This document shows positions 38,932 to 64,000 of a stretch of DNA of 64,000 nucleotides, piece by piece. Below the pieces are notes generated by a model that made no database searches, was not told the origin of the DNA, and was given only the letters and a program-made list of their open reading frames with translations. The position numbers were made by a program, and so were the translations under genes. The stretch is from assembly GCF_900105735.1 (NCBI RefSeq), contig NZ_LT629793.1, forward strand, positions 7,006,001 to 7,070,000, read 5' to 3'. The stretch comes from Pseudomonas yamanorum (GTDB lineage: Bacteria; Pseudomonadota; Gammaproteobacteria; Pseudomonadales; Pseudomonadaceae). Numbering within the stretch: position 1 is the first letter of the stretch; every line of letters begins with the position of its first letter.

Positions 38932-38977
38932 GGGGTCATGCCGAGATAAAGGAAATTTAGGACATTTGACCTGTAAC
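38932..38977 (+). repeat. Left terminal inverted repeat of the transposon
   Basis: The sequence starts GGGGTCATGCCGAGATAAAG and goes on through GAAATTTAGGACATTTGACC. From memory this is close to the 46-bp ends of Tn4651/Tn4652 and Tn5041. The length is set by that comparison, not by the partner, which is out of view. The five bases before it, TTCAT (38927-38931), would be the target duplication. Confidence 0.75.
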
Positions 38978-39053
38978 AGCATGATCTAATTATATTTTCA
39001 TGGAGCGCCACTCCACACACAAAAACGCAAAATTCGGCCATTTCAGTAATGGT

Positions 39054-40049
39054 TCAAGAGCTACTCGCACCATCTCTGTCAGCTGGTAGCGAATGCCCGA
39101 GTAGCTTCAGGTGTGCTACGGCCTCAACCAGGCGCTCCTGTAGGTTTTGCGCATACTCCGCTTGGGAAGCATTAATCTCGCCAAGCCGCGCCACCTCATC
39201 TTGCAGGGTTTGGCAGTGTTGCTCCACGGCGTCCTCCTTCCGCTCAGCAGTGGCCAGTGCACTCTGAGCGGACTCCAGAGTTTGGAGCTTTTGCTCCAGC
39301 ATCTGTTGCTGGGCTCGCTGATCCTTTTGCAGTTGTCGTGCCTCGGTGAGCAGCCGCTCATTGTCGCGGTTCAGTCGGGTCAGTTCGTCCTGCTTGACGA
39401 TCAGGGTTTACTGCAACTGGCGTATCTCCAGTTGCACCTGTTGAACCTGGGACTCGTGACGGCGTTGTTCCTGCTCACGCTGCTCCTTGCTGGCCTGGCG
39501 ATAGTGCTCCAGGGCATCGCGGGCGTGCTGATGCTTTTCCTCCAGCGAAAGGATCTGCCCGTCGCGATCCAGCAGACGTGCCGCTTGATCGAGGTTGGCC
39601 TGCTGCAAGCGGGCGTTCTCTACCTCGGCTTGCTGGCGTTGCTGCTGCGCCTTCTGCAACTCTTGTTGAGCAACTTGGAGGTGTACATCTGAAGCAGCGG
39701 CCTGACCTTCCAGCTGCTGGATACGATTTTCGGCCTGGCGGATCTGATTCTGATAGTCGAGCCGTTCGCGTGCCAGTTGCTCGCGCTCCTGGGCCACAGT
39801 GGTCTGGGCTTCCTTTTTCAGTTGATCGGCCAACTGGCCTACCAAATTGGCCAGTTGCTCGCTGAGCGGCAGTGCGTCCCCGTGGGGCTCCACGCCTTCA
39901 AGTTCTTTCAGGTAGCGGTGAATCGTGGTTTTCGAGCCGGTATTGCCCAGCTCGACCCGTACCGCATCGATGCTGGGGTTTTCTCCCCGAGCCAAGATGG
40001 TCAACCGCGCCCTCTGAACCAGCGCCTTGTTGATGCCGCCTCGCGCCAT
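39054..40049 (-). pseudogene. tnpT: tnpT, KfrA-like cointegrate-resolution accessory protein, with an in-frame nonsense codon
   Basis: The ATG at 40049 follows AGGAGC. The first part (MARGGINKALVQRARL, SKTTIHRYLKELEGVEP) is a KfrA-type DNA-binding domain; the rest is coiled coil rich in Gln, Glu and Arg. The frame runs 331 codons but has TAA at 39408-39410 after RQLQ (codon 214), and continues in the same frame with TLIVKQDELTRLNRDNERLL to 39054. One C-to-T change (CAA to TAA) explains it. TnpT assists TnpS at the resolution site in Tn4651-type elements, so resolution may be weakened. The 213-aa truncated form keeps the DNA-binding part. Confidence 0.8.
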
Positions 40050-40231: not shown

Positions 40232-41179
40232 ATGAACAAAGCGGATCGCTACCTGCAGGCCGGCACCCGGGAAAACACCCGGCGCAGCTACCGCGCGGCA
40301 GTGGAGCACTTCGAAGTGATCTGGGGTGGGTTTCTGCCGGCGACTGGCGATGGCATCGTGCGTTACCTCGCCGAGTACGCGGATAAACACACCATCAGTA
40401 CCCTGAAGCAGCGCCTGGCTGCCCTGGCTCAGTGGCATATCACTCAAGGATTTCCTGACCCGACTAAGACACCCACCGTGCGGCAGATGATCAAAGGCAT
40501 CCGCACCTTGCACCCGGTCCAAGAGAAGCAAGCGGCCCCTCTCCATCTCCTTCATCTGGAACAAGCGGTGACCTGGCTCGAGCGCGAAGCCGCGCACGCA
40601 GCGGAGCGACATGACTTCCATAACGTGATGAAACATCGACGCGACATCGCCTTGGTACTGATCGGATTCTGGCGAGGTTTTCGGGGAGATGAATTGGCAC
40701 GTCTGCAGGTCGAGCACACTCAAGCGGCTCCTGGCGCCGGCATCACCTTCTACCTGCCGCACACGAAGGGCGATCGACAGCATCTGGGCGCGAGCTTTCA
40801 AACGCCCGCCCTCAAAAAGCTCTGCCCTGTTCAGGCCTATATCAACTGGATCACCGTGGCCGGCATTGCCCGCGGGCCAGTGTTCAGGAAGGTGGATCGC
40901 TGGGGGAATCTCGCTGACGGCGCTATCAACCCGAACAGCCTGATCCCGCTGCTCCGCCGCATTCTTAAGCAAGCGGGTGTCCCGGCAGAGATGTACAGCA
41001 GCCACTCGATGCGACGCGGATTTGCGACCTGGGCGTCCGCCAATGGTTGGGACATCAAATCACTGATGAGTTACGTGGGCTGGAAGGATATCAAGTCAGC
41101 GCTGCGCTACGTAGATGCTGGCTCTTCCTTTGGAGGGCTTGCGATTAGAGCGTCAGCGCCAAAAATGGATCTTCTGTAA
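40232..41179 (+). CDS. tnpS: TnpS, tyrosine recombinase for cointegrate resolution
   Basis: 315 aa; ATG at 40232 behind GGAGAAGGG. The N-terminal core-binding domain begins NKADRYLQAGTRENTRRSYR. The catalytic domain has Arg I in GFWRGFRGDELARL, the HxxR in SSHSMRRGFATW, then VGWKDIKSALRYVD with the Trp/His position and the nucleophile Tyr. It is divergent from tnpT, as in Tn4651/Tn4652, and should recombine the site between them to resolve transposition cointegrates. The frame is intact. Confidence 0.85.
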   Translation: MNKADRYLQAGTRENTRRSYRAAVEHFEVIWGGFLPATGDGIVRYLAEYADKHTISTLKQRLAALAQWHITQGFPDPTKTPTVRQMIKGIRTLHPVQEKQAAPLHLLHLEQAVTWLEREAAHAAERHDFHNVMKHRRDIALVLIGFWRGFRGDELARLQVEHTQAAPGAGITFYLPHTKGDRQHLGASFQTPALKKLCPVQAYINWITVAGIARGPVFRKVDRWGNLADGAINPNSLIPLLRRILKQAGVPAEMYSSHSMRRGFATWASANGWDIKSLMSYVGWKDIKSALRYVDAGSSFGGLAIRASAPKMDLL

Positions 41180-41303
41180 GAAACCGCTTACGGGATGGTG
41201 ATTCTCAGGGAGATACCGGGACGGCATTAGTCAGCATGTCGGTGTTAATAGCGCAGCAGAAACCTTGGAATTCGTCTCGCTCATCCAAGTTGTGTAAGTG
41301 CAT

Positions 41304-41980: not shown

Positions 41981-41993
41981 CCTATGCGATCGG

Positions 41994-43021: not shown

Positions 43022-43645
43022 TTAAATAAGACCGTTTCTTTTTGCAAGGTCGGCCAAGTCTAGAATACCGTTAACCTGAAGTTTTTGCTGAAGCCTACTT
43101 CGGTATGTGCTGACAGTTTTACTGCTTATGTGTAGGTTTGTTGCTATGCTAATGTTAGATTCGCCCCTTGTTAAGGCTCGCAATACGTTTAGTTCTCTAG
43201 GGGATAATTGACTGATCATTTCCCTTTCTGTTGAAGCGAAGTCCTGCTTGCGAACGGAATTCATGATTTCTTTTGAGAACCAAGTATTGTTGCTTTTTAG
43301 CGCCATGCAAGCGGCTAATAGTTCTGACATGTCACTATCTTTCCGAAGGTAGCCACTAGCACCTGCATGGATACAGCGGACGGCAATCTCAGTACTCTGC
43401 ACGCCGGTTAGGATAAGGGTGCGATATTCTTTGGATTGCAACCAAAGTTTTTTGAGTACCCCCAATCCGTCAAGTTTAGGTAAGTCAATATCGAGTATTA
43501 TAATATCTGGATCGAGTTCTTGAATCATCTGAAGTGCGGTTAATCCGTCACTAGCCTCTCCTAAAACATCAAAGCCATTTTGTGTAAGAAAAGAGCGTAG
43601 GGCGCAGCGTATCACCGGGTGATCGTCTACCAATAAAATTTTCAT
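43022..43645 (-). CDS. NarL/FixJ-family response regulator (BvgA/RocA1/RcsB-like)
   Basis: 207 aa. The receiver has the acidic pair DD at 7-8, acceptor Asp52 in IIILDIDLPKLDG and Lys in GYLRKDSDM. A LuxR-type helix-turn-helix (about 145-205) reads LSPRELNVLRALTRGESNIS and KTVSTYRSRLQQKL. It overlaps the end of the BvgS-like kinase by 4 bp, so the two are made together and are a cognate pair. By analogy with BvgA and RocA1, the phosphorylated regulator should act on the divergent fimbrial operon starting at 47828. Confidence 0.9.
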   Translation of the reverse strand: MKILLVDDHPVIRCALRSFLTQNGFDVLGEASDGLTALQMIQELDPDIIILDIDLPKLDGLGVLKKLWLQSKEYRTLILTGVQSTEIAVRCIHAGASGYLRKDSDMSELLAACMALKSNNTWFSKEIMNSVRKQDFASTEREMISQLSPRELNVLRALTRGESNISIATNLHISSKTVSTYRSRLQQKLQVNGILDLADLAKRNGLI

Positions 43646-46600
43646 GTCTTGTCCTTGCTATCTAGATTTGATGTCGTGTTCCGACTCTTCAGGCGTGTGT
43701 AAATAAGCTGTTCTAGTCGTTGCAGCGCACGTGTAAGGGTTGATACTTCGTCTTCCAAATAGGCTGTGTTTTTTGATTTGGCGCTAGCTTCAATCGCTAT
43801 GCAAGCATCTACAACCTCATTTGCATCGACATACTGGGCCGCGCCCTTGATACGGTGAGCGAGGCTGGCCAAGCCTGGTAGATTTTGCTCTTCGAGATAA
43901 ATTGATATTTTTTCGGCATCGAGTCTATTGGTATAAATGAGCTCCTCAAAAAAAGCATCATCTTTCGTAAAATTTTTGTTTTCAAAGTCCGTATCAGCTG
44001 TAATTAACCTGTTTTCCGAAGACTGCGATACCTGTGTTCTATCACCGAAGATCCGGCTGATCTGGCGATTTATTTCTTCAAGTGTAATTGGTTTGAATAG
44101 ACATTCGGTCATGCCAGCCTTTTTACAAGCAACAATCATCTCTGACTGTGCGTTAGCGGTCAGTCCCAGAATAGGAATGCGAGATTCAGCAAGGTTACTT
44201 TCTACTTTACGCAGCATGCGAGTAAAATCCAGGCCGTCGATTCTAGGCATATTACAGTCTGTGATAATAAGATCGTATGGCGTCTTGGCGTTGCGCCATA
44301 ATGAGAAAGCCATTTCACCATCCTCGGCAGCATCAACTGTATGCCCCGAGAACTCCAGCTGTCTGGAGAGGAGCAGCCGGTTTGCGGAATGGTCATCAGC
44401 AATCAGAATATGCAGGCGAGCTAGCTGATGTTCATTTAACGTTGCAGGCGCATAAAGCTCCGACTTGTTAGATAGTCGTGCGCTGAAGCTTAGCCCGAAC
44501 GTTGAGCCCGCACCGAGTTCACTTTCGACCTCTATGGAGCTTGACATTAATGCCGCTAAGCGTTGCGAAATACTAAGCCCAAGCCCTGTGCCTCGATCTG
44601 CCATACTTTGATTACCCACCTGGACAAATGGTTCGAAGATGGCCTCCTGTTGCTCATCGCTCATACCAGGCCCTGTATCGGTGACCTCAACGGTGTAACG
44701 TCTCGACTGGGCGTCAGAGATATTGATGTCTTGAAAAATAGACAGTTCAACATTACCAGATTTCGTGAATTTTATAGCGTTACTCAGTAAGTTAGAGACA
44801 ATTTGCTTGAGCATAAGCGAGTCTACAAGGACGTAAGGATCCTGCACTTCAATAATTAGCATTATTTCAAGGCCTTTTTTCTTCGCGCTCTGCTCAAATA
44901 AAGTAAAAACGGACTCAATCAGTTCAGCTATATTGGTTGCTTGAAGGGATGATGTTATTGCTCCTGCCTCTATTTTTGATAAGTCCAGTATATCCCCGAC
45001 TAAAGCTAGAAGTGATTGTGCTGACTCATGAGCGATTTGCAGATATTCCTTAGCTTGCTCTTTATCATCGCTTCGATATTGTAATAACTCAAGAAGACCG
45101 GTAATAGCATTCATGGGCGTCCTGATTTCGTGGCTCATACTGGCTAGGAAAACTGATTTTGAACGGCTCGCCGCATCTGCTATTTCTTTAGCTTTAATTA
45201 TATCCAGCAGTAAGCGCTCTCGTTCAGTGATGTCGAGCCAGCCTCCGATAATACCAACGTGTTCACCGGCAGAGTTTCGGAATGGTAGTGTCCAGTGGTA
45301 AATTTGATAAGGAAGTCCTTGTACAAAGACTTCCAGGTTTGCAAAAGTTGGTTTTCCGTCAATGAGCGTCTGCTTGTATAATGAGTGATACGACTCCGTG
45401 ATTTCGGAGGTCATGATAGGGCTTTCATTTAAAGTTTTGCCTATTACTTCTTTGCGATCTGTTTTTAAGAAGTCCAGATAAGCGTCGTTGCACTGTAAAA
45501 GACGCCCATGTTTGTCACGTACGTACTGTGCGACGGGAGATCCATCCACCAGGGTTCGGGTGAATTCAAGTTGATCACTTAGCGCTAACTCCGCCTTTTT
45601 TCTTTGATTGATTTGTTTGCGAAGATAGACGTTCCAAGCAATGAACAGAAGAGCTATTGCGACTGTAATCCCGACTGAATTGTATACAAAGCTCCGGTAA
45701 TTGCTCCAAGAACTGGCCGGTGTTGGATTTGATCGTGTACGCCAGCGTTCAACTATACGTGAAAGCTCCTCTGGGGGGATGTCCATCATTGCTTTATTAA
45801 TAATACTCAATAATAGTGGCTCATCTTGCCGTGTGGCCATGGCGATATGGGCCGTCCGAGCCCCAACATTAGAGTTTATACGCATGCTATCTTTAAAAAA
45901 ATTTTCAATAAAATACTCTGCGCTGATTTGAGTATTAACGGTTCCATCTACCTTGCCTGTAGATAATAGCTCAATTCCGTTCGCAGCGTCGCCAGTACGC
46001 ACAAGCTTGATCTTTGGGAACTCCATACTCAGCCACGGTATGAGTGGATTTCCTTCAGGGATCGCTAAGCTTTTTCCATTCAGATCCTCCAGCGATAAAA
46101 GTGGTGGATCATCTATCTTCGAAGCAATGACGAAAGGGCTTGCTAAATAAGGTCTGCTAAACAACATGGTTTCTTTACGATTCTCGCCCACCGCCAAGGC
46201 TCCAATCAAATCCGCTTGGTTGCTATTAAGCATATCTACAGCGGTGATGATACTGTCCGCTGGTATCACCGTGAATATTAACCCTGATCGTTTCTGAATA
46301 TGACTTAGCACATCTGCGCCTAAGCCATGAAGTACCAGTTTTTCATCGAAAAAAGTAATAGGTGCATATGTGCCATTCACCACAACACGGACGTGTTTGT
46401 TGGCATTGAGCCAGATTTTCTCAGGATGAGTAAGTGCCAAAGGATTTGCTCTTTCAACATGTTGAGCGCCCATTCTCCACCTTGATGCGATGCGCATCCT
46501 CCGTGCGAGAGGTAGGGAAACTAATACTTGATTGATACCGTCCAGTAACGCAAGGTTATCAGCGCTCACTGCAAAGCTGGCGTTAAATGAAGGAGTTCGG

Positions 46601-47436
46601 GATAGAGAACCGGCGGTAGCTTTGTTCAGATATGCTCGATTGATCAAGTATTCGGCTGAGGCAAGATCGCTCCAGAGGACATCAACCTGACCATATACCA
46701 ATGCTGCAACCGCATTTTGCGGGGTGTTGTAGTGCACGATCTGCGCATGTGGGTACAGAATTTTAACTCTAGCGACGACTTGAGCATCCGCAGCGATACC
46801 CAATCTTCGTCCAGCTAAATCACCCGAGGTGTCTAAGACATCGCTTGGACGTTTTAAAATTACACTCTGATTAAGAAAGTAGGGAAGAGATGTAAGGATA
46901 TCCGATCTCGTATGTGCATCATCAGTATAGAGTGCCAGCATTTCGACCTGACCTTGGAGCAGAGCCTGTTCTGCTTCCACTTGGCTGGCAAAACGGAATA
47001 TAGCCAGTGGGATATTTAAGCTTTGTGAGAGGACGCCTAAATAGTCAGCACTTATGCCTTCAAATCCATCAGCTTGGTACTGAAGGTCGAACGGAGGGTA
47101 GGGGTCTGTGCCCCATACCGCGACCCTTATGCGCCTATGATTTTCGAGCCAGTTTAGGGTAGCTGGCGAGAGGTCGGCAGCAGCAGGTATTACAGGCGTT
47201 CGGACGATCAACCGAAGAGCATCGAGCTCGGCTAGCAGGACAGAGCTATGAAGCAAAATGAGGATGAGGCTCAGGGCTCTGAAAAAATAGATGGTCGTAT
47301 CCTCATTTCTATAGGTTTTGGGTTCGCAGGGTATGGCAACCATTCGGCGATAGCCTGAGACTACGCCTAACTTACCGCTGTCCCGGCTAGTTACGTCAGT
47401 GACGTGTCTGCTGAACGCTAGGGGTACTGAAGACAT
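43642..47436 (-). CDS. BvgS-like unorthodox sensor kinase, full length, fimbrial locus II
   Basis: 1264 aa. An N-terminal membrane segment near 50-68 (FFRALSLILILLHSSVLLA) is followed by two periplasmic SBP_bac_3 Venus-flytrap domains (about 85-315 and 330-565; IRVAVWGTDPYPPFDLQYQA and VRVVVNGTYAPITFFDEK). A second membrane helix lies near 580-600, then PAS (about 625-740), HisKA with ASMSHEIRTPMNA (about 768), HATPase, receiver with Asp in LIITDCNMP (about 1057) and HPt with LAHRIKGAAQ (about 1190). All relay residues are present. An alternative start 31 codons later is possible; neither has a good ribosome site. The gene is divergent from the fimbrial operon and AT-richer than the chromosomal genes around the transposon. 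Confidence 0.9.
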   Translation of the reverse strand: MSSVPLAFSRHVTDVTSRDSGKLGVVSGYRRMVAIPCEPKTYRNEDTTIYFFRALSLILILLHSSVLLAELDALRLIVRTPVIPAAADLSPATLNWLENHRRIRVAVWGTDPYPPFDLQYQADGFEGISADYLGVLSQSLNIPLAIFRFASQVEAEQALLQGQVEMLALYTDDAHTRSDILTSLPYFLNQSVILKRPSDVLDTSGDLAGRRLGIAADAQVVARVKILYPHAQIVHYNTPQNAVAALVYGQVDVLWSDLASAEYLINRAYLNKATAGSLSRTPSFNASFAVSADNLALLDGINQVLVSLPLARRMRIASRWRMGAQHVERANPLALTHPEKIWLNANKHVRVVVNGTYAPITFFDEKLVLHGLGADVLSHIQKRSGLIFTVIPADSIITAVDMLNSNQADLIGALAVGENRKETMLFSRPYLASPFVIASKIDDPPLLSLEDLNGKSLAIPEGNPLIPWLSMEFPKIKLVRTGDAANGIELLSTGKVDGTVNTQISAEYFIENFFKDSMRINSNVGARTAHIAMATRQDEPLLLSIINKAMMDIPPEELSRIVERWRTRSNPTPASSWSNYRSFVYNSVGITVAIALLFIAWNVYLRKQINQRKKAELALSDQLEFTRTLVDGSPVAQYVRDKHGRLLQCNDAYLDFLKTDRKEVIGKTLNESPIMTSEITESYHSLYKQTLIDGKPTFANLEVFVQGLPYQIYHWTLPFRNSAGEHVGIIGGWLDITERERLLLDIIKAKEIADAASRSKSVFLASMSHEIRTPMNAITGLLELLQYRSDDKEQAKEYLQIAHESAQSLLALVGDILDLSKIEAGAITSSLQATNIAELIESVFTLFEQSAKKKGLEIMLIIEVQDPYVLVDSLMLKQIVSNLLSNAIKFTKSGNVELSIFQDINISDAQSRRYTVEVTDTGPGMSDEQQEAIFEPFVQVGNQSMADRGTGLGLSISQRLAALMSSSIEVESELGAGSTFGLSFSARLSNKSELYAPATLNEHQLARLHILIADDHSANRLLLSRQLEFSGHTVDAAEDGEMAFSLWRNAKTPYDLIITDCNMPRIDGLDFTRMLRKVESNLAESRIPILGLTANAQSEMIVACKKAGMTECLFKPITLEEINRQISRIFGDRTQVSQSSENRLITADTDFENKNFTKDDAFFEELIYTNRLDAEKISIYLEEQNLPGLASLAHRIKGAAQYVDANEVVDACIAIEASAKSKNTAYLEDEVSTLTRALQRLEQLIYTRLKSRNTTSNLDSKDKT

Positions 47437-47689: not shown

Positions 47690-47709
47690 TTGTAGTCCAT
47701 TTCCTACAA
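47690..47709. promoter_or_regulatory. Dyad TTGTAG-N8-CTACAA containing TTTCCTA, upstream of pilin II
   Basis: Perfect 6-base arms (47690-47695, 47704-47709) embed TTTCCTA (47700-47706), an exact BvgA-type heptad by memory. It lies 119 bp before the pilin start in the 47437-47827 gap. That gap also holds a minus-strand frame of about 59 codons (about 47449-47620) with no start or family that I can support. Confidence 0.4.
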
Positions 47710-47827: not shown

Positions 47828-48406
47828 ATGAAACAGATTTCGCTTATCGCCCTCGCTATGGCCGCCGCTGTTTCCAGCAATGCATTTGCTGAGACCGGTA
47901 CCCTGACTTTCACTGGTAACCTGAACACTTCGACCTGTACCGTAACTCCTGGCGGTTCTGCTGGTTCAGGTGGTAGCGCAGGCGTTATCGATGTTGCCAT
48001 GGGTGATGTGTCGTTCGCGGATCTGGGAACAGTTGCTGGTGATGGCAGTGTGGGCGCGTCCTTTACTCCTATCGACCTTGGGCTCGAATGCTCTGAGGCC
48101 ACAGGCAAAACCTCGGTGGTAATGAGCTTCGATCCGGCGAGCGGTAGCGGTCTTGATGCTTCTGATAACCGACTTCTGAGCCTTGCATCTGGCGGTGCGA
48201 CCGGTGCTGGTATTGCGCTCATCAATTCCAACAACAAAATTATCGATTTGGGCGCTGGAGAAGAAATTAAGGCACCTCTAACCGTTGACGGCAGCGGTGA
48301 GGGTACTGCAGATTTTGCCTTGCGTGCCACATATGTAAGTAATGGTGGAACTGAAGCTGCTGGTGTTGCCAACGCAAGCCTGCCGTTTCTGCTGACCTAC
48401 GAGTAA
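47828..48406 (+). CDS. Fimbrial major subunit, locus II
   Basis: 192-aa precursor; signal peptide MKQISLIALAMAAAVSSNAF, AE. The mature part starts TGTLTFTGNLNTSTCTV with the first Cys, the second Cys in LGLECSEA, a Gly/Ser-rich loop (GGSAGSGGSAG) and the pilin-type ending ANASLPFLLTYE. It is more distant from the two locus I pilins than they are from each other. It is the first gene of the transposon-borne fimbrial operon, and there is only one pilin here. Confidence 0.85.
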   Translation: MKQISLIALAMAAAVSSNAFAETGTLTFTGNLNTSTCTVTPGGSAGSGGSAGVIDVAMGDVSFADLGTVAGDGSVGASFTPIDLGLECSEATGKTSVVMSFDPASGSGLDASDNRLLSLASGGATGAGIALINSNNKIIDLGAGEEIKAPLTVDGSGEGTADFALRATYVSNGGTEAAGVANASLPFLLTYE

Positions 48407-48555: not shown

Positions 48556-49545
48556 ATGAAGCTTCTTGCTCTTGCGGTACTTACGAGTACCGCGATGTGC
48601 TCTGAGGCCTTCGCTGATATAGGCGAGAATCCTTGTCAGTTCGGGCCAATAACTATTACTAACAATTTTATCGATGATATTTCTGGCGCTCCTTTGGGCT
48701 CAGAAATTGGTACTGTTGATTTCGATATTACTATTGAAAGCTGTGCCTTAGGGGGCGGAGTACCTGGGGGCGGAGGCTTCTACTTAGCTGGACAACCTTC
48801 ACCTGGGTACCCAAATTGGTGCTCCACCACTATTGATAGCGTGAAAATTTCCTCAGGCAAGTGGGGGGGGAACGGGAGCTGTAGCTATAATCATTCACAG
48901 CTCGGCTCGATTGGCCCAGGGCTAGGGGACTTTTATTTCGAACAGACGTCCTATCCACTGAGATATACCCGTCAGCTAGTTTATAAAAAAGTCGCTGAAA
49001 TCCCTGTCGGCGTAACTCAGCTTAATTTGCACGATCCAAGGCTGATGTTTGGCTTTGGGCCGAATGGTAGTTCGTATACCGGATTGGTTTCAAATCTTGC
49101 GACATTCCCTAGTGGCGAAGTGGTTGGAACGAGATGTTCACTATCCTCAAGCGTCATACCGGTTGATTTTGGACAGATAAGTAGTTCTGGGGCATCCAGA
49201 GAATTCGAGATTGCATTTGGTGACTGTAGTGGTCGAGAGGATGCAGTTTCCTTCAATAATGCTGTGAGTGTGGAATTTAGCTCGGAGAATATACGAGCAG
49301 ATGGCACGGCTCTATTGAATTGTAACGCCGCAGACTGTGCTAAAGGCATCCAAATTGGGCTGAAAGATAGTAGTGGACGGGATATTAATTTATTGTCGGG
49401 GATAAAGCTATCCAGCAATAATCCATCAATCAGTGATGACGGATTGATCCATACATTTATCGCTGAGGTGGAAGCTCGGGTGGATGAGGCTATAGAAGTT
49501 GGTAAAATTGATACACAGCTAGTGTTTGAAACTGTTGTGGAGTGA
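48556..49545 (+). CDS. Two-domain fimbrial tip adhesin, locus II
   Basis: 329-aa precursor with a signal peptide (MKLLALAVLTSTAMCSEAFA). The N-terminal domain (about 22-185) has four cysteines and a Gly-rich loop (ALGGGVPGGGGF), as expected of a binding domain. The C-terminal pilin-like domain (about 195-329) has TRCSLSSSVIPVDFGQISSS, ASREFEIAFGDC and the end strand IDTQLVFETVVE. It resembles the locus I adhesin in layout but not in detail, so ligand choice probably differs. In this operon it comes second, not last. Confidence 0.75.
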   Translation: MKLLALAVLTSTAMCSEAFADIGENPCQFGPITITNNFIDDISGAPLGSEIGTVDFDITIESCALGGGVPGGGGFYLAGQPSPGYPNWCSTTIDSVKISSGKWGGNGSCSYNHSQLGSIGPGLGDFYFEQTSYPLRYTRQLVYKKVAEIPVGVTQLNLHDPRLMFGFGPNGSSYTGLVSNLATFPSGEVVGTRCSLSSSVIPVDFGQISSSGASREFEIAFGDCSGREDAVSFNNAVSVEFSSENIRADGTALLNCNAADCAKGIQIGLKDSSGRDINLLSGIKLSSNNPSISDDGLIHTFIAEVEARVDEAIEVGKIDTQLVFETVVE

Positions 49546-49606
49546 TTCTGATCGCGGTATCTATTAACTTCCGCGATGCATGTGTGTTCAAGAGGGTAGC
49601 TATAGT

Positions 49607-50338: not shown

Positions 50339-50431
50339 AATCTTCCCTGTAAGCTCAAGTAAAGCGCCGATTGATACTCGGTGCCAAGGGGCTTTCTTGT
50401 CTCAAAAATAGCTGAATTCAGGTTGATAACC

Positions 50432-53147: not shown

Positions 53148-53570
53148 ATGATAACCAAAAATTTTCGCGTAATGATTGTTGATGCAGATCACTCCCAGCG
53201 TCTGTTTATCGAGAAAACACTCAATGGTCTAGGATATTACTCTGTTCTAGGAATGGCCACCATGAAAGAGGCCACAGCAATATTGCCATTCTCTAATGCG
53301 CGCTTTGATTTGTTGATGGTTAATAGTCTAGCAATTTTCGAGTTCGGTTTAGATGCAGCAGAGTTCTGCAAAAATAGTCGATTCGTAAAGAATGCAGTTT
53401 TTTATGGTAATTTTGTGCCACTTTTCAGCGAGCCGTCAACATATAGTGATATATTTTCGAGCAAGGTTATTTCGCCTTACGCTATAAAGATGAATACGCT
53501 AAACGCTTTAATGCAAGAGCTTGATGATGCGGTGACTAAAAAGAAATTTAACGTTAAAGTTGTAGCATAA
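53148..53570 (+). CDS. Receiver-like protein lacking the phospho-acceptor Asp (140 aa), fimbrial locus II
   Basis: The ATG at 53148 follows GAGG; with it the product is 140 aa, exactly the length of the locus I homologue at 3334. The opening FRVMIVDADHSQRLFIEKTL and GLGYYSV align with the partner without gaps. The acceptor position in RFDLLMVN is Asn59 instead of Asp. The acidic pocket is reduced to the D12-x-D14 region. No output domain. Retention of such a protein at both fimbrial loci argues for a real, phosphorylation-independent job, perhaps binding the BvgS-like kinase or its regulator. Confidence 0.7.
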   Translation: MITKNFRVMIVDADHSQRLFIEKTLNGLGYYSVLGMATMKEATAILPFSNARFDLLMVNSLAIFEFGLDAAEFCKNSRFVKNAVFYGNFVPLFSEPSTYSDIFSSKVISPYAIKMNTLNALMQELDDAVTKKKFNVKVVA

Positions 53571-54779: not shown

Positions 54780-55148
54780 ATGTCCCGTCTCGCTGAATTC
54801 CGTGCGCTTGAACAACAGCTTGCTGCCCAATTAGCAGAGCTTGAAACACTGAAAAACGATGATGGTCTGAAGCGTGAGATTGAATTCGAAACGAAATTTC
54901 GTGATCTGCTGGGTGAGTATGGTTACAGCTTGCGCAATATTGTCGCGATTATCGATCCGCACTCTTCAAACCGCCGTGCTCCAGCAGCTGCTGAAATCAA
55001 AGGCTCCCGTAAGGCTCGGGCTCTAAAGGTTTACAAGAATCCTCACTCGGGCGAAGTCGTCGAGACTAAGGGCGGCAACCACAAGGTGTTGAAAGAATGG
55101 AAGGCTCAGTACGGTTCTGACAAGGTCGAGACTTGGCTGGCTCAGTAA
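54780..55148 (+). CDS. MvaT/MvaU-family H-NS-like nucleoid protein
   Basis: 122 aa; ATG at 54780 behind GAGG. The N-terminal coiled coil for dimerisation (SRLAEFRALEQQLAAQLAEL) and the C-terminal DNA-binding part (KVYKNPHSGEVVETKGGNHK, VLKEWKAQYG) match MvaT, MvaU and the Tur proteins of Pseudomonas. These silence AT-rich foreign DNA. Here the gene is itself transposon cargo, next to an AT-rich fimbrial locus; P. aeruginosa MvaT represses cup fimbriae, so it may hold locus II silent until the BvgS-like relay is active. The paralogue name cannot be fixed by eye. It has its own promoter and terminator. Confidence 0.9.
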   Translation: MSRLAEFRALEQQLAAQLAELETLKNDDGLKREIEFETKFRDLLGEYGYSLRNIVAIIDPHSSNRRAPAAAEIKGSRKARALKVYKNPHSGEVVETKGGNHKVLKEWKAQYGSDKVETWLAQ

Positions 55149-55535: not shown

Positions 55536-55876
55536 TTAGCGCTTCATGAACCGACGCATGGGCGTGATTTCGTAGAGTGCCTCTTCCATGGCCGGATCAC
55601 TCAGGGAAAACCAATTTTGCAGCAGGTGAATGCGCAGCATGGTCTCCAGTGGGTAGGGTTTTCTACCGCCACCGGCCTTAGGGTAGAAAGGTTCGATCAG
55701 CCCCAGTAGGCCTGTCCAGGGTTCGACCTGAACCATCTGGGAAAGAAAGCGCTCGCGGCGGGTTTGCTTGCGCTTACCGGCGTACTCGAAGTCGGAAAAG
55801 CTCATCTGGCTCATGGGCGGCTCGGATCAGGTGGTCAGGCGATTTTCGCATACCCGGGACTTGTTCGGAGAATCCC
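55536..55876 (-). mobile_element. Truncated IS5-family element
   Basis: From 55553 to 55876 the minus strand matches the first 324 bp of the element starting at 57158, with one difference seen (a Gln for a Glu codon in KRKxTRRERF). It holds the IS end (GGATTCTCCGAACAAGTCCC) and the first 87 or so transposase codons (start at 55814), then breaks off. A CTAG tetranucleotide at 55875-55878 is the kind of target used by IS5 elements. Confidence 0.85.
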
Positions 55877-56350
55877 TAGCGAATATGAAGGGGACGAATT
55901 TCGCCTCAATTATGAGTCATGTTGCAGTCAATGGTGTTGCAAGCTTCCAAACGCACAGTACAGGTAGCGAAGCCCGTAAAACGAGGCAATTGCCGGAGGC
56001 CCTTTCCAGTGCACCGGCTGATTCAGCGGGATGACAGAAAACACAATTGCCTTAGCATTTCCGTTTTTCGCGACCAATTTGAGAGTTCGATCAGGTCCTT
56101 GTGGTAGATCAACCGATACCTAGGGTCGGCCAAATTGATGGCTTACCGTCGACATACACATCCCCGTCGATTGGGATTACGAATTGCGACTTGCCCTTCG
56201 GGGACTGAGATCTCTAGCTGTCCGCCGCTCTCAATGGAGATATCCAGCAAACGGACGTCTGTCAGGAGCGTCATCAGGGATGACACCATCGCTGTCGATA
56301 AGCATAGTCGATCAGGCGAAAACTTTATTTCTAAGACAGTATCCTAGCCG
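55877..56350. other. Spacer between IS arm and lipoprotein gene; possible gene scrap
   Basis: No intact gene. On the minus strand around 56105-56300, two frames carry pieces that could belong together (LLDISIESGGQLEISVPEGQ and IPIDGDVYVDGKPSIWPTLG), suggesting a frameshifted remnant of an unknown gene. Confidence 0.3.
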
Positions 56351-56689: not shown

Positions 56690-57157
56690 ATGCAGCTCCA
56701 TCTATTTAGCAGAGTCGGTAGCTTAACGCAGAATCTTGCACCGTTGGAAAACATGGCGATGCCTACGAGCCATGGAGGTACCAACCTCTTAAGAACATCG
56801 TTTGGACATACCCCGCATGTAGGACGTTCTCACGCGCCTACCGGCGCGGCAGCACGGTAGATCGCAAAAGCCTTTTCACTGTCTACACGGCTAGTTTTCA
56901 TGCTATTCAAGAGTTCATCCTTTATCGCCTGAGGAGCATCGCCAGCAGTAGCGGAAGTCAGCCGATACAAGTCTCGGTTTTGTCGACTGCATCCATCTTA
57001 GCCTCAGCGGTCTTGGTGACGGATAGGCGCTTATTGGAGAAAACAGACCAAAGAGTGGAAGAGAACTTCGTTACCCCTTGGCTCGCTACTCTACTCACCG
57101 CCAATGTAATGAGTGCAAAAATTGCAAATGATTATATAAGTTTTGTTGATAGCTTTA
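56690..57157. other. Spacer without an intact gene
   Basis: A minus-strand start (MKTSRVDSEKAFAIYRAAAP) near 56904 ends after 23 codons. A plus-strand frame (56980-57207) has no ribosome site and runs into the IS end, so it is probably a leftover of a gene cut by the insertion. Confidence 0.35.
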
Positions 57158-58152
57158 GGGATTCTCCGAACAAGTCCCGGGTATGCGAAAATCGCCTGAC
57201 CACCTGATCCGAGCCGCCCATGAGCCAGATGAGCTTTTCCGACTTCGAGTACGCCGGTAAGCGCAAGGAAACCCGCCGCGAGCGCTTTCTTTCCCAGATG
57301 GTTCAGGTCGAACCCTGGACAGGCCTACTGGGGCTGATCGAACCTTTCTACCCTAAGGCCGGTGGCGGTAGAAAACCCTACCCACTGGAGACCATGCTGC
57401 GCATTCACCTGCTGCAAAATTGGTTTTCCCTGAGTGATCCGGCCATGGAAGAGGCACTCTACGAAATCACGCCCATGCGTCAGTTCGCGCTTCTGACACT
57501 GAGCGCTCCGATCCCAGAAGACACCACGATCATGAACTTCCGACACCTGCTGGAGAAGCATCAACTGGCTTCTGCAAGCCTCGCGGTCATCAACGGCTAT
57601 TTGCAGGAAAAAGGCCTGTCGTTGCGCGAGGGCACCATCGTCGACGCTACAATTATTCATGCCCCAAGCTCGACCAAGAACAAAGACGGCGAGCGCGATC
57701 CCGAGATGCATCAGACCAAGAAGGGTAACCAGTATTTCTTTGGTATGAAGGCGCACATCGGCGCTGACGTTGAGTCAGGACTGGTTCATCACGTTCATGG
57801 CACCGCCGCCAACATGGCCGATGTCAGCCAAGTCGCCGAACTGCTCCATGGGGAAGAAAACGCGGTGTATGCGGACGCTGGATACACCGGTGTCGAGAAG
57901 CGTGACGTGATCTGGCAAATCGCGGCTCGGCGCAGCACGTATTCCAAGCTGAACAAACGCATCCTGCTGTACAAAGCCAAGCGCAAGATCGAGTATTCCA
58001 AAGCGCAGACACGCGCCAAGGTTGAGCATCCGTTTCGGGTCATCAAGCGCCAGTTTGGTTACGTGAAAGTACGCTTTCGTGGGCTGATGAAAAACACGGC
58101 CCAACTGACCACGCTATTCGCCCTGTCGAACCTGTGGATGGCTCGAAAGTGA
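57158..58152 (+). mobile_element. IS5-family insertion sequence (right end not identified)
   Basis: The left end GGATTCTCCGAACAAGTCCC follows TTAG (57155-57158), an IS5-type YTAR target. The transposase fills the rest. I could not find a matching inverted copy of the end within the 168 bp after the transposase stop; CACGGAGAACC near 58180 is only a weak match. Confidence 0.7.
57220..58152 (+). CDS. IS5-family transposase
   Basis: 310 aa, complete. DDE transposase of the IS5/IS1384 kind: the N-terminal DUF772 region ([20 protein letters not shown]), first Asp in GTIVDATIIHAPSS, second Asp in YADAGYTGVEKRD, and the Y-R-E region with ARAKVEHPFRVIKRQFGY. The N-terminal third is duplicated in inverted orientation at 55553-55814. 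Confidence 0.93.
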   Translation: MSQMSFSDFEYAGKRKETRRERFLSQMVQVEPWTGLLGLIEPFYPKAGGGRKPYPLETMLRIHLLQNWFSLSDPAMEEALYEITPMRQFALLTLSAPIPEDTTIMNFRHLLEKHQLASASLAVINGYLQEKGLSLREGTIVDATIIHAPSSTKNKDGERDPEMHQTKKGNQYFFGMKAHIGADVESGLVHHVHGTAANMADVSQVAELLHGEENAVYADAGYTGVEKRDVIWQIAARRSTYSKLNKRILLYKAKRKIEYSKAQTRAKVEHPFRVIKRQFGYVKVRFRGLMKNTAQLTTLFALSNLWMARK

Positions 58153-58320
58153 CTGATGGGTATGGGCGAGTTACGCGCTTAACACGGAGAACCAGGCGAA
58201 AAACGCTCCTGCCGGAGACTGCATTAGGCCGTTTTCAGGGAATAGCGCTGCGCGCCTCGCAAATTACGGCTTGCCATCGCTGCGCGACAAGTTAATCGGA
58301 GCATCCTTAGGAGAATCACA

Positions 58321-59170: not shown

Positions 59171-59800
59171 ATGGATGCAACCACGCTATTCCTCTACATC
59201 GTGACAGTCAGCGCAGTAATGATGACGCCGGGGCCGTCGATGCTGTTAGCACTAAATAACGGTGCTTCACACGGCATGCGTATTGCGGGCTGCGGTATTG
59301 CCGGTGCGGCGCTTTCCGATGTGATTTTGATTGGTGCGGTGGGCTGTGGCTTGGGGGCATTACTGCATGCCTCCGAGCAGTTGTTTTCGCTGGTGAAGTG
59401 GGGTGGGGCGGTCTATCTGTTGTACCTGGCCTGGGTGTTGTGGAAATCGCCGACCCAGGCGTTGGCGCAGAAATGTTCCGCAAGCACGACCAACGGGCGT
59501 TCGGCGTTCATGCGTTCGCTGTTTGTCGGGCTTTCCAATCCCAAGGGGCTGCTATTTTTCTCGGCGTTCCTGCCACAGTTCGTGCATCCCGGTGAGCCGG
59601 TGGCGCAGCAGTACGTGGTGCTGGCGCTGGTCAGTGCGGCGATTGACTGCGTGATGATGGCGATCTATGCCTTTGGCGGTCGTCATGCCATGCGCACGTT
59701 TTCTTCCCGGGTCATGTTGTGGATCAACCGCAGTTGCGCCGGGATGCTGGCGCTGCTAGCGGTGGGGTTGAGTCTTTATCGGCGCAGCGATCTACGTTGA
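59171..59800 (+). CDS. LysE/RhtB-family exporter
   Basis: 209 aa; GGAG eight bases before the ATG. Six predicted membrane helices with the family start TVSAVMMTPGPSMLLALNNG, then GCGIAGAALSDVILIGAVGC and SLFVGLSNPKGLLFFSAFLP. These proteins export amino acids or related small metabolites. It stands alone; the 266 bp before it (58905-59170) contain nothing I can name. Confidence 0.88.
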   Translation: MDATTLFLYIVTVSAVMMTPGPSMLLALNNGASHGMRIAGCGIAGAALSDVILIGAVGCGLGALLHASEQLFSLVKWGGAVYLLYLAWVLWKSPTQALAQKCSASTTNGRSAFMRSLFVGLSNPKGLLFFSAFLPQFVHPGEPVAQQYVVLALVSAAIDCVMMAIYAFGGRHAMRTFSSRVMLWINRSCAGMLALLAVGLSLYRRSDLR

Positions 59801-60501: not shown

Positions 60502-60509
60502 AAAAAACT

Positions 60510-60641: not shown

Positions 60642-61004
60642 CTAGTCCTGATAGTCCGGAGCAAGTGCTGCCAAAGGAGCAACCTGTTTAGAACCCGCTT
60701 GCAAGCAATAACATAAAGCAGAAATATCCTCTTGAAGCGCTATTGCCTCTTCCCAAATGCTGTCGACATCACTGGCAGCGACGGCAAGGGAGGAGCCTTC
60801 CAATACGGTCATGGCCATAGCATGCAGACGTAAGAAGTCGTCCCGAATACTGGCGATCCCTCCGATTTGAGCAAGGCAGGCATCCAACCGGTCCACCCAG
60901 TTATGCAATTCAGAGGTTTCGTAGCTCGCGCGCAGGGACTTAAGTGCCTTGACGTCGACTTCCCCATAGGGTGTCACTCGAAACGAAGCGGGTGGAATGT
61001 GCAT
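60642..61004 (-). CDS. tnpC: TnpC, small regulator of transposase amount
   Basis: 120 aa, the size I recall for TnpC of Tn4652, which lowers TnpA after transcription. It starts MHIPPASFRVTPYGEVDVKA, and the rest is helical (RDDFLRLHAMAMTVLEGSSL). Its ATG overlaps the tnpA stop (TGATG), so it is translated in step with tnpA. Identification rests on length, partner and arrangement; I cannot align it here. Confidence 0.75.
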   Translation of the reverse strand: MHIPPASFRVTPYGEVDVKALKSLRASYETSELHNWVDRLDACLAQIGGIASIRDDFLRLHAMAMTVLEGSSLAVAASDVDSIWEEAIALQEDISALCYCLQAGSKQVAPLAALAPDYQD

Positions 61005-64000
61005 CAGGTCGTCTCCTCAACGTTGTTATTAGGCATCTGTTGCGCACGCATTGACCCCGCAGCCTGCTGGAAAATAGAATCCATGATCCAAGGTTCCGGT
61101 GGACGCTTGAGTTTCAGGTTGAACTCCCCAAAGCGTTTAACATTGCTGGTCAGGTAGGGACTAAGAAACGATACGTCGTCGTCAGTGAACTGCCAGCCAT
61201 CCTGGGCGAGCTTCTGCAGGATGCGCATCATGTCGACGGTGTTCTGCAAGATCACCGAGGAGGCAATCATATCGTTGTAACGCAAGCGCTTCTGTTGCTC
61301 ATCTGGATCGTTCTCGGCGATGACATCGCCGCCGAAGGACAGCCACTTTGAGAATCCGTTGTAAGACTCAATCTTGTTGGTATTGGCAGTTACTTCTTGG
61401 CGCAACTCACGATTGCCAATCCATTTGAGCAGAAAAATGGTCCGGATCACGCATCCCAGCTCCTGTGCTGCATGGTAGAGCTTGTTGCGCCGACTGTAAG
61501 AACCGAGTTTACGCAGCAGCATTGGCGAAGATATTTTGCCGGCCTGAATCGACAGCGCCACCTGCATCAGATCTTGCCAATGGGTCTCTATCTGGCTCCA
61601 GTCGACGGTATCGGCGAAGAGGCTGTTGATGTGTTTGTACTTGGCCGAGCGATCGGGTCGATACATGACCAGGTTGCGCCAGTTGCGGATGCGAGGCATT
61701 AGATTGATGCCCAATAGATGGGTGAACGCAAACACCGTCGCAGACTGGCCTTGAGTGTCTGAATAGACCGTATCGACTTCAACGCTATGGTCCGCTTTCA
61801 GCAAGCCCTCGATGACATAGATAGCCTCCCAGATACCTGGTGGGATGAAGTGCTGAAAGACAGCGATGTAGTTATTTGCCACATGCCGATAGGCGACTGC
61901 GCCCATCTTCCGGTAGCGGAAGTGATAGCCGGCGAGCAGGTTTTCATCGTAGAAGTCGAATTGAGTCCCGTCGGCCGCCACCGCCTTGCCATCACCCCAG
62001 AGCTTGGGTAGATCGAGTTGAAGGTAGAGTTCGACCAACTCCCGGTTAGCCTTATCCAGCTTGTCGAGTGGCAAGTGCCGACGATTGGTGTAAGACAGCA
62101 TGTGTGGGGTTACGTTACCCGCCAGATGGCGAGCGGCCTGGTTTGGCCCTAGGTTGCAGCCCATGGCGAATATCGTCATCAGGTAGCGTTCGGCCGGCTC
62201 CTTCAGTTTGGGGTCGCTGCCGGACATCGGTCCGAAATGGCGGGTGAACTGAATCCAGTGTTCAATGTTGGCCATAATGTCGAGCACATGCCTGGCAGGC
62301 ATACGCTGAGTAATCGCCGTTTGTAGCGAGATTGCTGAGGGCGGGATGTCACGGGCGACCACTCGGCGCAACACAGGATCACCGGCCTCATTAATTGACA
62401 CGTCACCGTGGCAACTGGGAAGTTTGTCATCCAACTGCTGAGCGGTGCTCTCAAGTTGCTCCTTCAAGCTGGCGACAAACTCTTTGGCGGTACTCGGCAG
62501 GCCGACCTTTTCGCAGTATTCCGGCAGACGAGCCAGGAACTCATCCCAGGGCAATAACTGTTTGCGGTAGTCAGCAAACGACTCCGAACCCAGGACACAG
62601 ATATCGCCAGAGCGAAGCTCATTGGCCAGATGAGAAAAAACGCAGACTTCCAGGAAGCGCCGGTTGGTCGGTGGCCCTTCGCTGGCGGCGCGACGGACAA
62701 CTTTGATCCAACGATCCGAGGAGAACGACAGGTCCACATGCTCGTCGATCCATTCCCTATGCCGGTTCTCGTTGTCCTGGACCAAATGCAAAGCGTCGAT
62801 AAGCGAGCGATCCTGGGTTGTTGGCTCCAGTTGCAGCAGATGGCTCAGGCGGAACAGCAGTGATCGATGGGATTTGAAGTGTTTCCAGAGTAGCGGGAGA
62901 TAGTTACTGCCGCCTGTGGCCTGGACTTCGGCGCAGGCCTCGCGAAGGTGATCAAGACTCCCCTCGGGGGACAGATACTCGCGAATCAAGCTGCCAGCTT
63001 CCCGATCACTTGGTTCTTGGCTGAGAATCTGAATCACACCATCCAAGGTAGCCACGAGCAACTCTAGCTTTTTGCGCTGACGTAGCTGTATCTGCTCCAA
63101 CTCATCCTTGGCTCGCTTGTGAATCGTCGCGACTCGCTTGATGAACATCTCAGCAAGGTGATCCCGTGCTCGTACACGCATGAGGTAGATCAGCGCCAGC
63201 ATCAAGGTGTAGCGCTTTGGAAGCGAGCAATCCTTAAGCTCTGAAACATCTGCTTTCTCTGCTTGATTCGAAAAAAACCAAATCTTGGTATCAACGATTC
63301 CCTCAAAGATAGCGTCGAGGTCGCCGAATCCCTCCAACCAACTTAAGTGGTCGATCAATATCTCCAAGTGTTTGCGAGAGGGCTTCTTGGGGACCTGCTT
63401 TAGGGCATTGAATTCGCTTTGACGACGACCGAAATCGGTGTCAAGAAGCTCTCTGAGACGATAGATCACATCAATCGGAGCCCTATCGACGACTCGGTTG
63501 AAAATCTTTTCCTGGAGAGCAACTTGGGCGTCTTCAGCCGCATCATTGAGCGTCGAGTACGCCGGCAGCTCGTAACCTCGCTCAAGTAGCTCGCCAATCA
63601 GGACATTGATGACATCAACGCGCTGATCAAGGACCTCCGCCGCTTCGTGGGCAGTTTCCTCGGCAATTTTCAGAGCATCGCTCCCATAAAACGCGGTGAT
63701 CTGTAGATATTGACGGATAGCTCTTTGATGGCGATACAAGGTTCGGGGAGTCGCATAACGAGGCACTATGCGAACCCCGTAACGGAGGCAAGACCTGACA
63801 TGATTGACGATTTCAGTCGGAATCACTTCGAGACTGGGAAAGTAATGAAGCTGTTGGAATGTTTTCAGCAGAACAGCTAAACCAATGGTAAGAGCAGGGC
63901 TTTTAGCCGTTCTAGAGAGCCATTCGAGCTCAGATTCTGAGAGCGAATAGCACTGATGAAGTTCTTTCGACGACAAGTGCGCCGGCAGCTTCGGATAGGC
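61004..64000 (-). CDS. tnpA: TnpA, Tn3-superfamily transposase (N-terminus outside window)
   Basis: The frame is open through the right edge: before codon SSKELHQCYSLS the sequence continues AYPKLPAH, so the start lies beyond 64,000. About 998 codons are visible, and Tn4652 TnpA is about 1004 aa from memory. The DDE core is in the second half: AVAADGTQFDFYDENLL (first Asp), DTVYSDTQGQSATVFAF (second Asp) and VTANTNKIESYNGFSKWLSF (Glu). No frame break is visible. It reads inward from the right end and is followed by tnpC. Confidence 0.9.
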   Translation of the reverse strand, partial: AYPKLPAHLSSKELHQCYSLSESELEWLSRTAKSPALTIGLAVLLKTFQQLHYFPSLEVIPTEIVNHVRSCLRYGVRIVPRYATPRTLYRHQRAIRQYLQITAFYGSDALKIAEETAHEAAEVLDQRVDVINVLIGELLERGYELPAYSTLNDAAEDAQVALQEKIFNRVVDRAPIDVIYRLRELLDTDFGRRQSEFNALKQVPKKPSRKHLEILIDHLSWLEGFGDLDAIFEGIVDTKIWFFSNQAEKADVSELKDCSLPKRYTLMLALIYLMRVRARDHLAEMFIKRVATIHKRAKDELEQIQLRQRKKLELLVATLDGVIQILSQEPSDREAGSLIREYLSPEGSLDHLREACAEVQATGGSNYLPLLWKHFKSHRSLLFRLSHLLQLEPTTQDRSLIDALHLVQDNENRHREWIDEHVDLSFSSDRWIKVVRRAASEGPPTNRRFLEVCVFSHLANELRSGDICVLGSESFADYRKQLLPWDEFLARLPEYCEKVGLPSTAKEFVASLKEQLESTAQQLDDKLPSCHGDVSINEAGDPVLRRVVARDIPPSAISLQTAITQRMPARHVLDIMANIEHWIQFTRHFGPMSGSDPKLKEPAERYLMTIFAMGCNLGPNQAARHLAGNVTPHMLSYTNRRHLPLDKLDKANRELVELYLQLDLPKLWGDGKAVAADGTQFDFYDENLLAGYHFRYRKMGAVAYRHVANNYIAVFQHFIPPGIWEAIYVIEGLLKADHSVEVDTVYSDTQGQSATVFAFTHLLGINLMPRIRNWRNLVMYRPDRSAKYKHINSLFADTVDWSQIETHWQDLMQVALSIQAGKISSPMLLRKLGSYSRRNKLYHAAQELGCVIRTIFLLKWIGNRELRQEVTANTNKIESYNGFSKWLSFGGDVIAENDPDEQQKRLRYNDMIASSVILQNTVDMMRILQKLAQDGWQFTDDDVSFLSPYLTSNVKRFGEFNLKLKRPPEPWIMDSIFQQAAGSMRAQQMPNNNVEETT

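What the first reader, a model, noticed from the sequence alone, without database searches (positions are those of the whole stretch)
38932..64000. A Tn4651/Tn4652-type transposon that carries a complete chaperone-usher fimbrial locus with its own phosphorelay and silencer
Directly seen: tnpT/tnpS, tnpC/tnpA, a terminal-repeat-like sequence cutting an AraC gene, and between them an intact BvgS-like kinase, NarL-type regulator, pilin, adhesin, chaperone, usher and receiver-like protein, plus an MvaT-family gene. Known Tn4651-family cargo is catabolic or metal resistance; the nearest precedent I know for a mobile cup locus is cupD on PAPI-1, an integrative element. A unit transposon that moves surface fimbriae with dedicated signalling and a possible silencer would be a new kind of cargo.
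Basis: partly seen in the sequence, partly recalled or inferred. Interest (0 to 1): 0.95.

Follow-up and report, generated by a model that had tools for sequence, protein, structure and literature searches.

The report
Jumping gene carrying complete fimbriae locus
A 25-kilobase mobile DNA element (a transposon) is lodged inside a regulator gene of a likely Pseudomonas chromosome and carries a full set of genes for hair-like surface fibres plus a predicted sensor-regulator pair to control them, and a sister element in a related genome carries an unrelated set, so the ability to stick to surfaces likely travels as transposon cargo.

Summary
The genome continues past 64,000; an inverted end stops at 64172 (40/46 identical; next best 24/46), followed by TTCAT and the missing AraC half. 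Joined flanks less one TTCAT give one open 306-aa AraC frame. The element is 25,241 bp; its tnpA is 82.5% identical to Tn4651 of pWW0. Between tnpS and tnpC lie open genes for a BvgS-like kinase, NarL-type regulator, pilin, adhesin, chaperone and usher, foreign in composition.

Corrections: tnpT has an in-frame stop; the 'receiver' has N at the phosphorylation site; an EAL gene beside the one close chromosomal relative found (G041) is missing; MvaT has no shown link to the fimbriae; Tn4651-group virulence cargo (TnXax1) and transposon-borne fimbriae (Tn6011) are known.

New here: of 26 tnpA places in 20 of 398 genomes, a second (G096) has an unrelated SCPU-type chaperone-usher operon between tnpS and tnpC-tnpA. 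A dyad in the kinase-pilin gap recurs only in G041 among 220 loci held. That the cargo entered before insertion is inferred. New variant of a known kind.

The parts
38506..38931 (-). C-terminal half of the interrupted AraC-family gene (host); N-terminal half at extended coordinates 64178-64672
   Evidence: joined flanks less one TTCAT give one open 306-aa frame
38927..38931 (.). left copy of the 5-bp target duplication TTCAT (right copy at extended 64173-64177)
38932..38977 (+). left terminal inverted repeat (IRL); its partner IRR lies outside the window at extended 64127-64172 (genome 7070127-7070172; L006 2128-2173)
   Evidence: 40/46 identical to IRR; next best place 24/46
39054..40049 (-). 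tnpT (cointegrate resolution protein), interrupted by an in-frame TAA at 39408-39410
   Evidence: Pfam KfrA_N; pieces 79% and 64% to pWW0 TnpT; stop seen
40232..41179 (+). tnpS (tyrosine recombinase)
   Evidence: Pfam Phage_integrase; 68% to pWW0 TnpS
43022..43645 (-). NarL-type response regulator
   Evidence: Pfam Response_reg + GerE; acceptor Asp motif present
43642..47436 (-). BvgS-like unorthodox sensor kinase: two SBP_bac_3, PAS, HisKA, HATPase, receiver, Hpt
   Evidence: Pfam; phospho-His/Asp motifs present; best NCBIfam match EvgS, below its cut-off
47691..47708 (.). dyad TGTAG-N8-CTACA in the divergent kinase-pilin gap: proposed regulator site
   Evidence: one match in the window, also in the same gap of G041, in no other of the 220 loci held
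47828..48406 (+). major pilin
   Evidence: Pfam Fimbrial
48556..49545 (+). tip adhesin-like protein with C-terminal pilin domain
   Evidence: Pfam Fimbrial at residues 186-322; adhesin role inferred
49580..50338 (+). periplasmic chaperone
   Evidence: Pfam PapD_N, PapD_C
50381..52987 (+). outer-membrane usher (FimD-like)
   Evidence: Pfam Usher, PapC_N, PapC_C; relatives
53148..53570 (+). degenerate receiver-like protein, N at the acceptor site
   Evidence: low-confidence model (pLDDT 56)
54780..55148 (+). MvaT-family gene; link to the fimbriae not shown
   Evidence: Pfam MvaT_DBD
55548..55877 (-). partial IS5-family copy, inverted, 99.4% identical to 57157-57486
57157..58200 (+). IS5-family insertion sequence
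   Evidence: Pfam DDE_Tnp_1; annotated IS5 family (some ISPa41) in matching plasmid records
58321..58800 (+). isochorismatase-family gene (cargo)
   Evidence: Pfam
59171..59800 (+). LysE-family exporter (cargo)
   Evidence: Pfam
60642..61004 (-). tnpC
   Evidence: NCBIfam TnpC_regulator above cut-off; 49% to pWW0 TnpC
61004..64000 (-). tnpA transposase, open frame; its start codon lies 30 bases beyond the window (extended 64030), and the right end IRR follows at extended 64127-64172
   Evidence: 82.5% to pWW0 Tn4651 transposase

Best explanation
A 25,241-bp Tn4651-type (Tn3-family) unit transposon sits inside an AraC-family gene of a likely Pseudomonas chromosome and holds an open chaperone-usher fimbrial locus together with its BvgS-like kinase and NarL-type regulator, and it likely brought the whole set in by one transposition. 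Shown: ends, TTCAT duplication, interrupted AraC frame, open tnpA, gene content and foreign composition. Inferred: the locus was captured between tnpS and tnpC before this insertion (a chromosomal relative exists beside tRNA-Pro in G041); TnpA joined the ends to the AraC target, making the 5-bp repeat; the cointegrate was resolved while tnpT was whole, or by host recombination. Predicted to work in the host: the kinase's two periplasmic binding domains sense a ligand, phosphate passes His-Asp-His to the regulator's Asp, and the regulator acts at the divergent kinase-pilin gap (candidate dyad 47691-47708) to switch on pilin-adhesin-chaperone-usher. The locus appears to lack a working RocR-type partner: its receiver lacks the acceptor Asp and the EAL gene of the G041 locus is absent, so control would rest on the kinase and regulator. 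With tnpT now broken, further rounds would likely end in unresolved cointegrates unless another TnpT acts.
For: Ends 40/46 against 24/46 for the next-best place, TTCAT on both sides, AraC frame restored by joined flanks. tnpA, tnpS, tnpC 82.5, 68, 49% and tnpT pieces 79 and 64% to pWW0 Tn4651. Locus proteins by Pfam, phosphorelay motifs present. Third-position GC 38-47% in the fimbrial locus against 69% tnpS, 63% tnpA, 62-71% in three host genes. Orthologous locus in G041 with no match to the window's transposon proteins within 39 kb. Second case with an unrelated operon in G096.
Against: No second site or second genome with this same transposon plus cargo was found (at most two candidates per genome were scored in 26 and 32), so joint movement rests on one insertion. 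Capture after insertion is not excluded. tnpT carries an in-frame stop. No empty site was seen in 17 other genomes. The dyad and signalling path are untested; the promoter scan found no sigma-70-like site in the gap.
Confidence: 0.78

Rival explanations
1. The transposon landed in AraC first, and the fimbrial locus entered it later in place, by homologous or IS-mediated recombination; it has never moved as cargo.
For: A transposase fragment and a LysR fragment lie left of the fimbrial locus and IS5 copies right of it; no other copy of the combined element was found.
Against: G096 shows a whole fimbrial operon between tnpS and tnpC-tnpA in a sister element; the locus differs in composition from both host and transposon, which fits older capture elsewhere but does not prove it.
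Confidence: 0.17
2. The element moved once with its cargo but is now stuck: the broken tnpT blocks resolution and it is inherited vertically as an ordinary chromosomal locus. (Compatible with the best explanation for the past.)
For: In-frame stop at codon 214 of 331.
Against: tnpA, tnpS, tnpC open and both ends present; other tnpS/tnpT pairs in this genome could act in trans, untested.
Confidence: 0.4
3. The MvaT gene is a dedicated silencer of the fimbrial locus.
For: It lies 1.2 kb behind the receiver gene; cupA of P. aeruginosa is controlled by MvaT (PMC2696094, abstract passage).
Against: No mvaT match in the 39 kb around the G041 locus; fragments and IS copies share its surroundings; the genome has three other mvaT genes and plasmids carry relatives up to 77%.
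Confidence: 0.12
4. The two ends belong to separate elements and bracket the locus by chance.
For: The ends differ at 6 of 46 positions.
Against: Identical 5-bp flanks and exact restoration of the AraC frame.
Confidence: 0.02

Closest known systems
Tn4651/Tn4652 (TOL plasmid pWW0, P. putida KT2440)
   Same: tnpT-tnpS at one end, tnpC-tnpA at the other, related ends
   Different: between the pWW0 ends lie xyl catabolic and metal genes; here fimbriae with a phosphorelay; tnpT broken here
TnXax1 of Xanthomonas (Tn4651 subgroup)
   Same: tnpST-type unit transposon with host-interaction cargo (PMC7157771; PMC6304161; passages read)
   Different: cargo are effector and lytic transglycosylase genes, not a multi-gene surface organelle with signalling
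Tn6011 (mrkABCDF on IncX plasmids)
   Same: a transposon carrying a chaperone-usher fimbrial operon (PMC3402527; passages read)
   Different: composite, IS-flanked, enterobacterial; of its control genes only a truncated gene on one plasmid is mentioned in the passages
cupD with PvrSR/RcsCB on PAPI-1
   Same: mobile cup locus probably acquired together with two-component genes (PMC2696094, PMC3842833; passages read)
   Different: on a pathogenicity island and flanked by direct repeats; two sensors and an EAL regulator; here one BvgS-like sensor, no EAL
Roc (RocS1-RocA1-RocR) control of cupB/cupC
   Same: unorthodox sensor plus activating regulator for cup genes (PMC2696094); RocR was the top fold hit for the receiver (weak model)
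   Different: no EAL partner; receiver lacks the acceptor Asp
G096 element (this work)
   Same: sister Tn4651-type element, tnpA 93%, fimbrial operon between tnpS and tnpC
   Different: SCPU-type operon without signalling genes; left half not joined in the assembly

Membership tests
Tn4651 subgroup of the Tn3 family | Tn3-type transposase close to Tn4651 TnpA | tested here: met
   82.5% over 990 residues to pWW0; NCBIfam Tn3 transposase above cut-off
Tn4651 subgroup of the Tn3 family | terminal inverted repeats of about 46 bp of the family type | tested here: met
   40/46 between ends; same first 18 bases as the pWW0 left end, gapless 25-27/46 over the full length, probably because of a small indel (no gapped alignment made)
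Tn4651 subgroup of the Tn3 family | 5-bp target duplication | tested here: met
   TTCAT both sides, AraC frame restored
Tn4651 subgroup of the Tn3 family | divergent tnpS and tnpT genes present | tested here: met
Tn4651 subgroup of the Tn3 family | unbroken tnpT | tested here: not met
   in-frame TAA at codon 214 of 331; lowers the claim of a working element, not its kinship
Tn4651 subgroup of the Tn3 family | rst resolution site between tnpS and tnpT | tested here: inconclusive
   20-bp joint of the G096 contigs found in pWW0 and two other elements at 3-4 mismatches, not here and not in 5 other stretches with tnpS/tnpT
Tn4651 subgroup of the Tn3 family | transposition by TnpA | not testable with these tools
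   needs a transposition assay
chaperone-usher fimbriae | pilin, PapD-type chaperone, FimD/PapC-type usher in open frames | tested here: met
   Pfam above cut-offs
chaperone-usher fimbriae | fibres assembled on the surface | not testable with these tools
   needs microscopy
Roc/Sad cup regulatory system | BvgS-like unorthodox sensor with DNA-binding regulator | tested here: met
Roc/Sad cup regulatory system | REC-EAL antagonist (RocR) | tested here: not met
   receiver-only, N at acceptor site; G041 EAL has no match in 43001-64000 better than E 0.2
IS-bounded composite transposon | fimbrial locus between two like IS copies | tested here: not met
   both copies of the IS5 element lie right of the locus; the transposase fragment on the left is another one
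integrative conjugative element | relaxase or conjugation genes between the ends | tested here: not met
   none among the 20 ORFs scanned; shorter or overlapping ORFs not scanned

The most novel reading that the evidence does not exclude
Tn4651-type unit transposons are a recurring vehicle for chaperone-usher fimbriae in Pseudomonas: they have captured, separately, a FimD-like fimbrial locus with its own phosphorelay (this window) and an archaic SCPU-type operon (G096), and thereby reshuffle which surface fibres a strain bears, a cargo class for these transposons not described in the papers seen.
Probability: 0.6. Interest if true: 0.72.

Novelty: new variant of a known kind. Interest (0 to 1): 0.62.

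Why it matters
Fimbriae decide what a bacterium sticks to. A unit transposon that carries the organelle and its sensor together, and a second one with a different organelle, gives a concrete route by which adhesion can be swapped between chromosomes without an integrative element, and it makes the co-transfer of a regulator with its own target genes directly testable.

Tried and rejected
Silencer: rejected as part of the unit. 'Missing brake' from loss of EAL: kept only as a remark, because the G041 receiver and the window receiver are not detectably alike (blastp E 0.026), so the two 3' modules may never have been the same. Structure of the receiver: the AlphaFold model from 3 sequences is poor (pLDDT 56); its best PDB match, RocR, has E 1.1e-3 and is only a hint. 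rst core from the G096 contig joint: did not generalise. Plasmid carriage of the cargo: 97 plasmid records match parts of the element and none covers 80%; the best place of each plasmid record is under 60% identity for both ushers. Context of the 13 ushers at 61-76% identity was not fetched; the one scan of genome contigs found only ushers at 32-38%. An empty AraC site elsewhere: not found in 17 other genomes. tnpA in 390 genomes of the order: 7 hold a match, only this genome and G303 above 80%. Literature: no paper on a Tn3-family unit transposon with a chaperone-usher locus appeared in the listings; I read passages of seven papers, none in full. PMC5023117 and PMC10104325 were seen in listings only.
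Full report
What was checked. The window is G000:C1:7006001-7070000 of a 7,087,425-bp single-contig genome. The continuation L006 was read. The left 46-base end at 38932 has an inverted partner ending at extended coordinate 64172, 40/46 identical; the next-best place for the same 46-mer scores 24/46 in the window (both strands) and the extension (minus strand). TTCAT flanks both ends, and the flanks joined less one TTCAT give one open AraC-family frame of 306 aa. The element is 25,241 bp long.

The vehicle. Against Tn4651 on pWW0 the transposase is 82.5% identical, TnpS 68%, TnpC 49%, and the two pieces of TnpT 79% and 64%. NCBIfam names TnpC and the Tn3 transposase above their cut-offs. tnpT has an in-frame TAA at 39408-39410, codon 214 of 331; pWW0 TnpT has 332 residues. 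So the unit has moved, but its resolution system is now probably defective; this last step is inference.

The cargo. Pfam shows a NarL-type regulator, a kinase with two periplasmic binding domains, PAS, HisKA, HATPase, receiver and Hpt, a pilin, an adhesin-like protein with a C-terminal pilin domain, a chaperone and a usher, all in open frames. The phosphotransfer motifs are present. The 140-aa receiver-like protein and its two relatives found (62 and 63% identical) all carry N where the acceptor Asp would be; its Pfam receiver match is sub-threshold (E 0.043), and a low-confidence model matches RocR best. Receiver-only proteins with the same N stand in two of the 20 fimbrial stretches compared (L111, L113). 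Third-position GC of the fimbrial locus is 38-47%, of tnpS 69%, tnpA 63%, and of three host genes 62-71%. The rest of the interior holds fragments, an MvaT gene, a whole and a partial IS5 copy (99.4% alike), an isochorismatase-family gene and a LysE-family exporter.

Relatives. Thirteen proteins in the large protein set are 61-76% identical to the usher, the next about 50% (7994 candidates scored, best 120 listed). Of 398 genomes of the genus 234 hold some usher match at E 1e-50; of the matches listed only G041 is close (74%; the others at most 51%) (the list is cut, and at most two candidates per genome were scored). In G041 the same genes in the same order (regulator 70%, kinase 58%, pilin 78%, adhesin 40%, chaperone 66%, usher 73%) lie about 0.7 kb from a tRNA-Pro gene, behind genes that by eye are pheT and a MerR gene; none of the window's transposon proteins matches in these 39 kb; the locus is followed by a receiver-like frame without a Pfam match and an EAL gene. 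The EAL gene has no counterpart in 43001-64000 (best E 0.2). Twenty further loci, taken from the upper part of the list, with 46-49% ushers have pilin-chaperone-usher with other kinase/EAL/regulator matches before them (18 of 20) or none (L108, L109). A DNA search of 392 genomes gave 11 with a match, its own among them, and only G041 strongly; the window's own genome has a remnant at 1146793-1147472 with a pilin piece (75%) and a usher piece (79%) beside IS debris. So the locus is an existing chromosomal type that was likely captured.

Control region. In the 391-bp kinase-pilin gap the dyad TGTAG-N8-CTACA stands at 47691-47708, its only match in the window (0.02 expected). The G041 gap holds the only match in its 19.5-kb stretch, and of 220 loci held (many overlapping) only copies of these two places match. 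It is a candidate regulator site; no sigma-70-like site was found.

A second case. The transposase was searched in 398 genomes of the genus: 20 have it at E 1e-100, at 26 places (at most two candidates per genome scored, so more copies may exist; three places are at 38%, and several are partial). One-sided stretches of 4.5-40 kb on the cargo side were read for all 26 (25 stretches); tnpS was met in 15 of the 25, so in the other 10 the far end was not seen. Fimbrial genes were sought there with five queries at E 1e-5. They lie inside the element in 2 of 26: the window and G096:C61. G096:C61 (10,802 bp) runs tnpS - adhesin - usher - chaperone - two pilins - tnpC - tnpA (93%) - right end, which is the contig end; three of the five fimbrial proteins are SCPU-domain proteins. 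'Archaic' is my label for this type, recalled. Its left half is likely one of two contigs that share a 20-base joint with it, so its left end and target repeat are not shown. G096 has another usher of this type elsewhere (68%), and 181 of 398 genomes hold relatives at E 1e-60 (best 76%). In G052:C1 fimbrial genes lie outside the end repeat and were not counted. Other elements with target repeats read off: G303 (CTGCA; arsenic-type genes), G005 (TATTA; mercury-type genes), G360 (AACAC); these gene types are by eye, not scanned. In 390 genomes of the order, 7 hold the transposase at E 1e-200, only this genome and G303 above 80%.

How it probably works. TnpA moved the unit into AraC (shown by its scars). 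The kinase and regulator are predicted to switch on the divergent pilin operon, which follows the logic of Roc and Rcs/Pvr control of cup genes (PMC2696094, PMC3842833, passages), without the EAL partner. Travelling with its own activator would let the locus work in a new host; untested.

What is known. Tn4651-subgroup elements with virulence cargo (TnXax1: PMC7157771; PMC6304161), a fimbrial composite transposon (Tn6011: PMC3402527) and cup loci on islands (cupD above; a prophage remnant and an island of P. fluorescens-group strain SS101, PMC3390384) are in print; P. putida work seen in passages (PMC3056050) lists Tn4652 parts and Csu pili apart. A Tn3-family unit transposon with a chaperone-usher locus was not in the listings. 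Hence: new variant of a known kind, with a second example.

Noticed in passing
window 6302-8763: A further fimbrial usher gene is broken into pieces in different reading frames; the genome has 12 usher matches: nine whole genes, this one in two pieces, and one remnant.
   Followed up: partly
L098 (G000:C1:1146793-1147472): Remnants of a locus like the one in the transposon (pilin start 75%, usher piece 79%) amid IS debris, next to another whole usher operon.
   Followed up: partly
L099-L100 (G000:C1:1236535-1252139): A tnpS/tnpT pair followed by genes that look like Tn7-type transposition genes (by eye, not scanned) abuts another fimbrial locus whose kinase seems cut down to its Hpt end.
   Followed up: no
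L101 (G000:C1:168442-170537): A tnpS/tnpT pair with no close tnpA found beside it; the tnpA search listed only the window's copy in this genome.
   Followed up: no
L111 19155-19700 and L113 1170-1562: Receiver-only proteins with N at the acceptor site in stretches around other fimbrial loci: perhaps a wider family of non-phosphorylated receivers tied to cup genes.
   Followed up: partly
L173 (G096:C22 1-9772): A second tnpT in G096 is split by about 8.5 kb that holds what looks by eye like another Tn3-family transposase.
   Followed up: no
window 55548-58200: A whole and a partial IS5 copy in inverted order, 99.4% alike, enclose a DUF1375 lipoprotein-like gene.
   Followed up: no
L156-L157 (G052:C1): A fimbrial locus lies outside the end repeat of another Tn4651-type element, within about 17 kb of it.
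   Followed up: no
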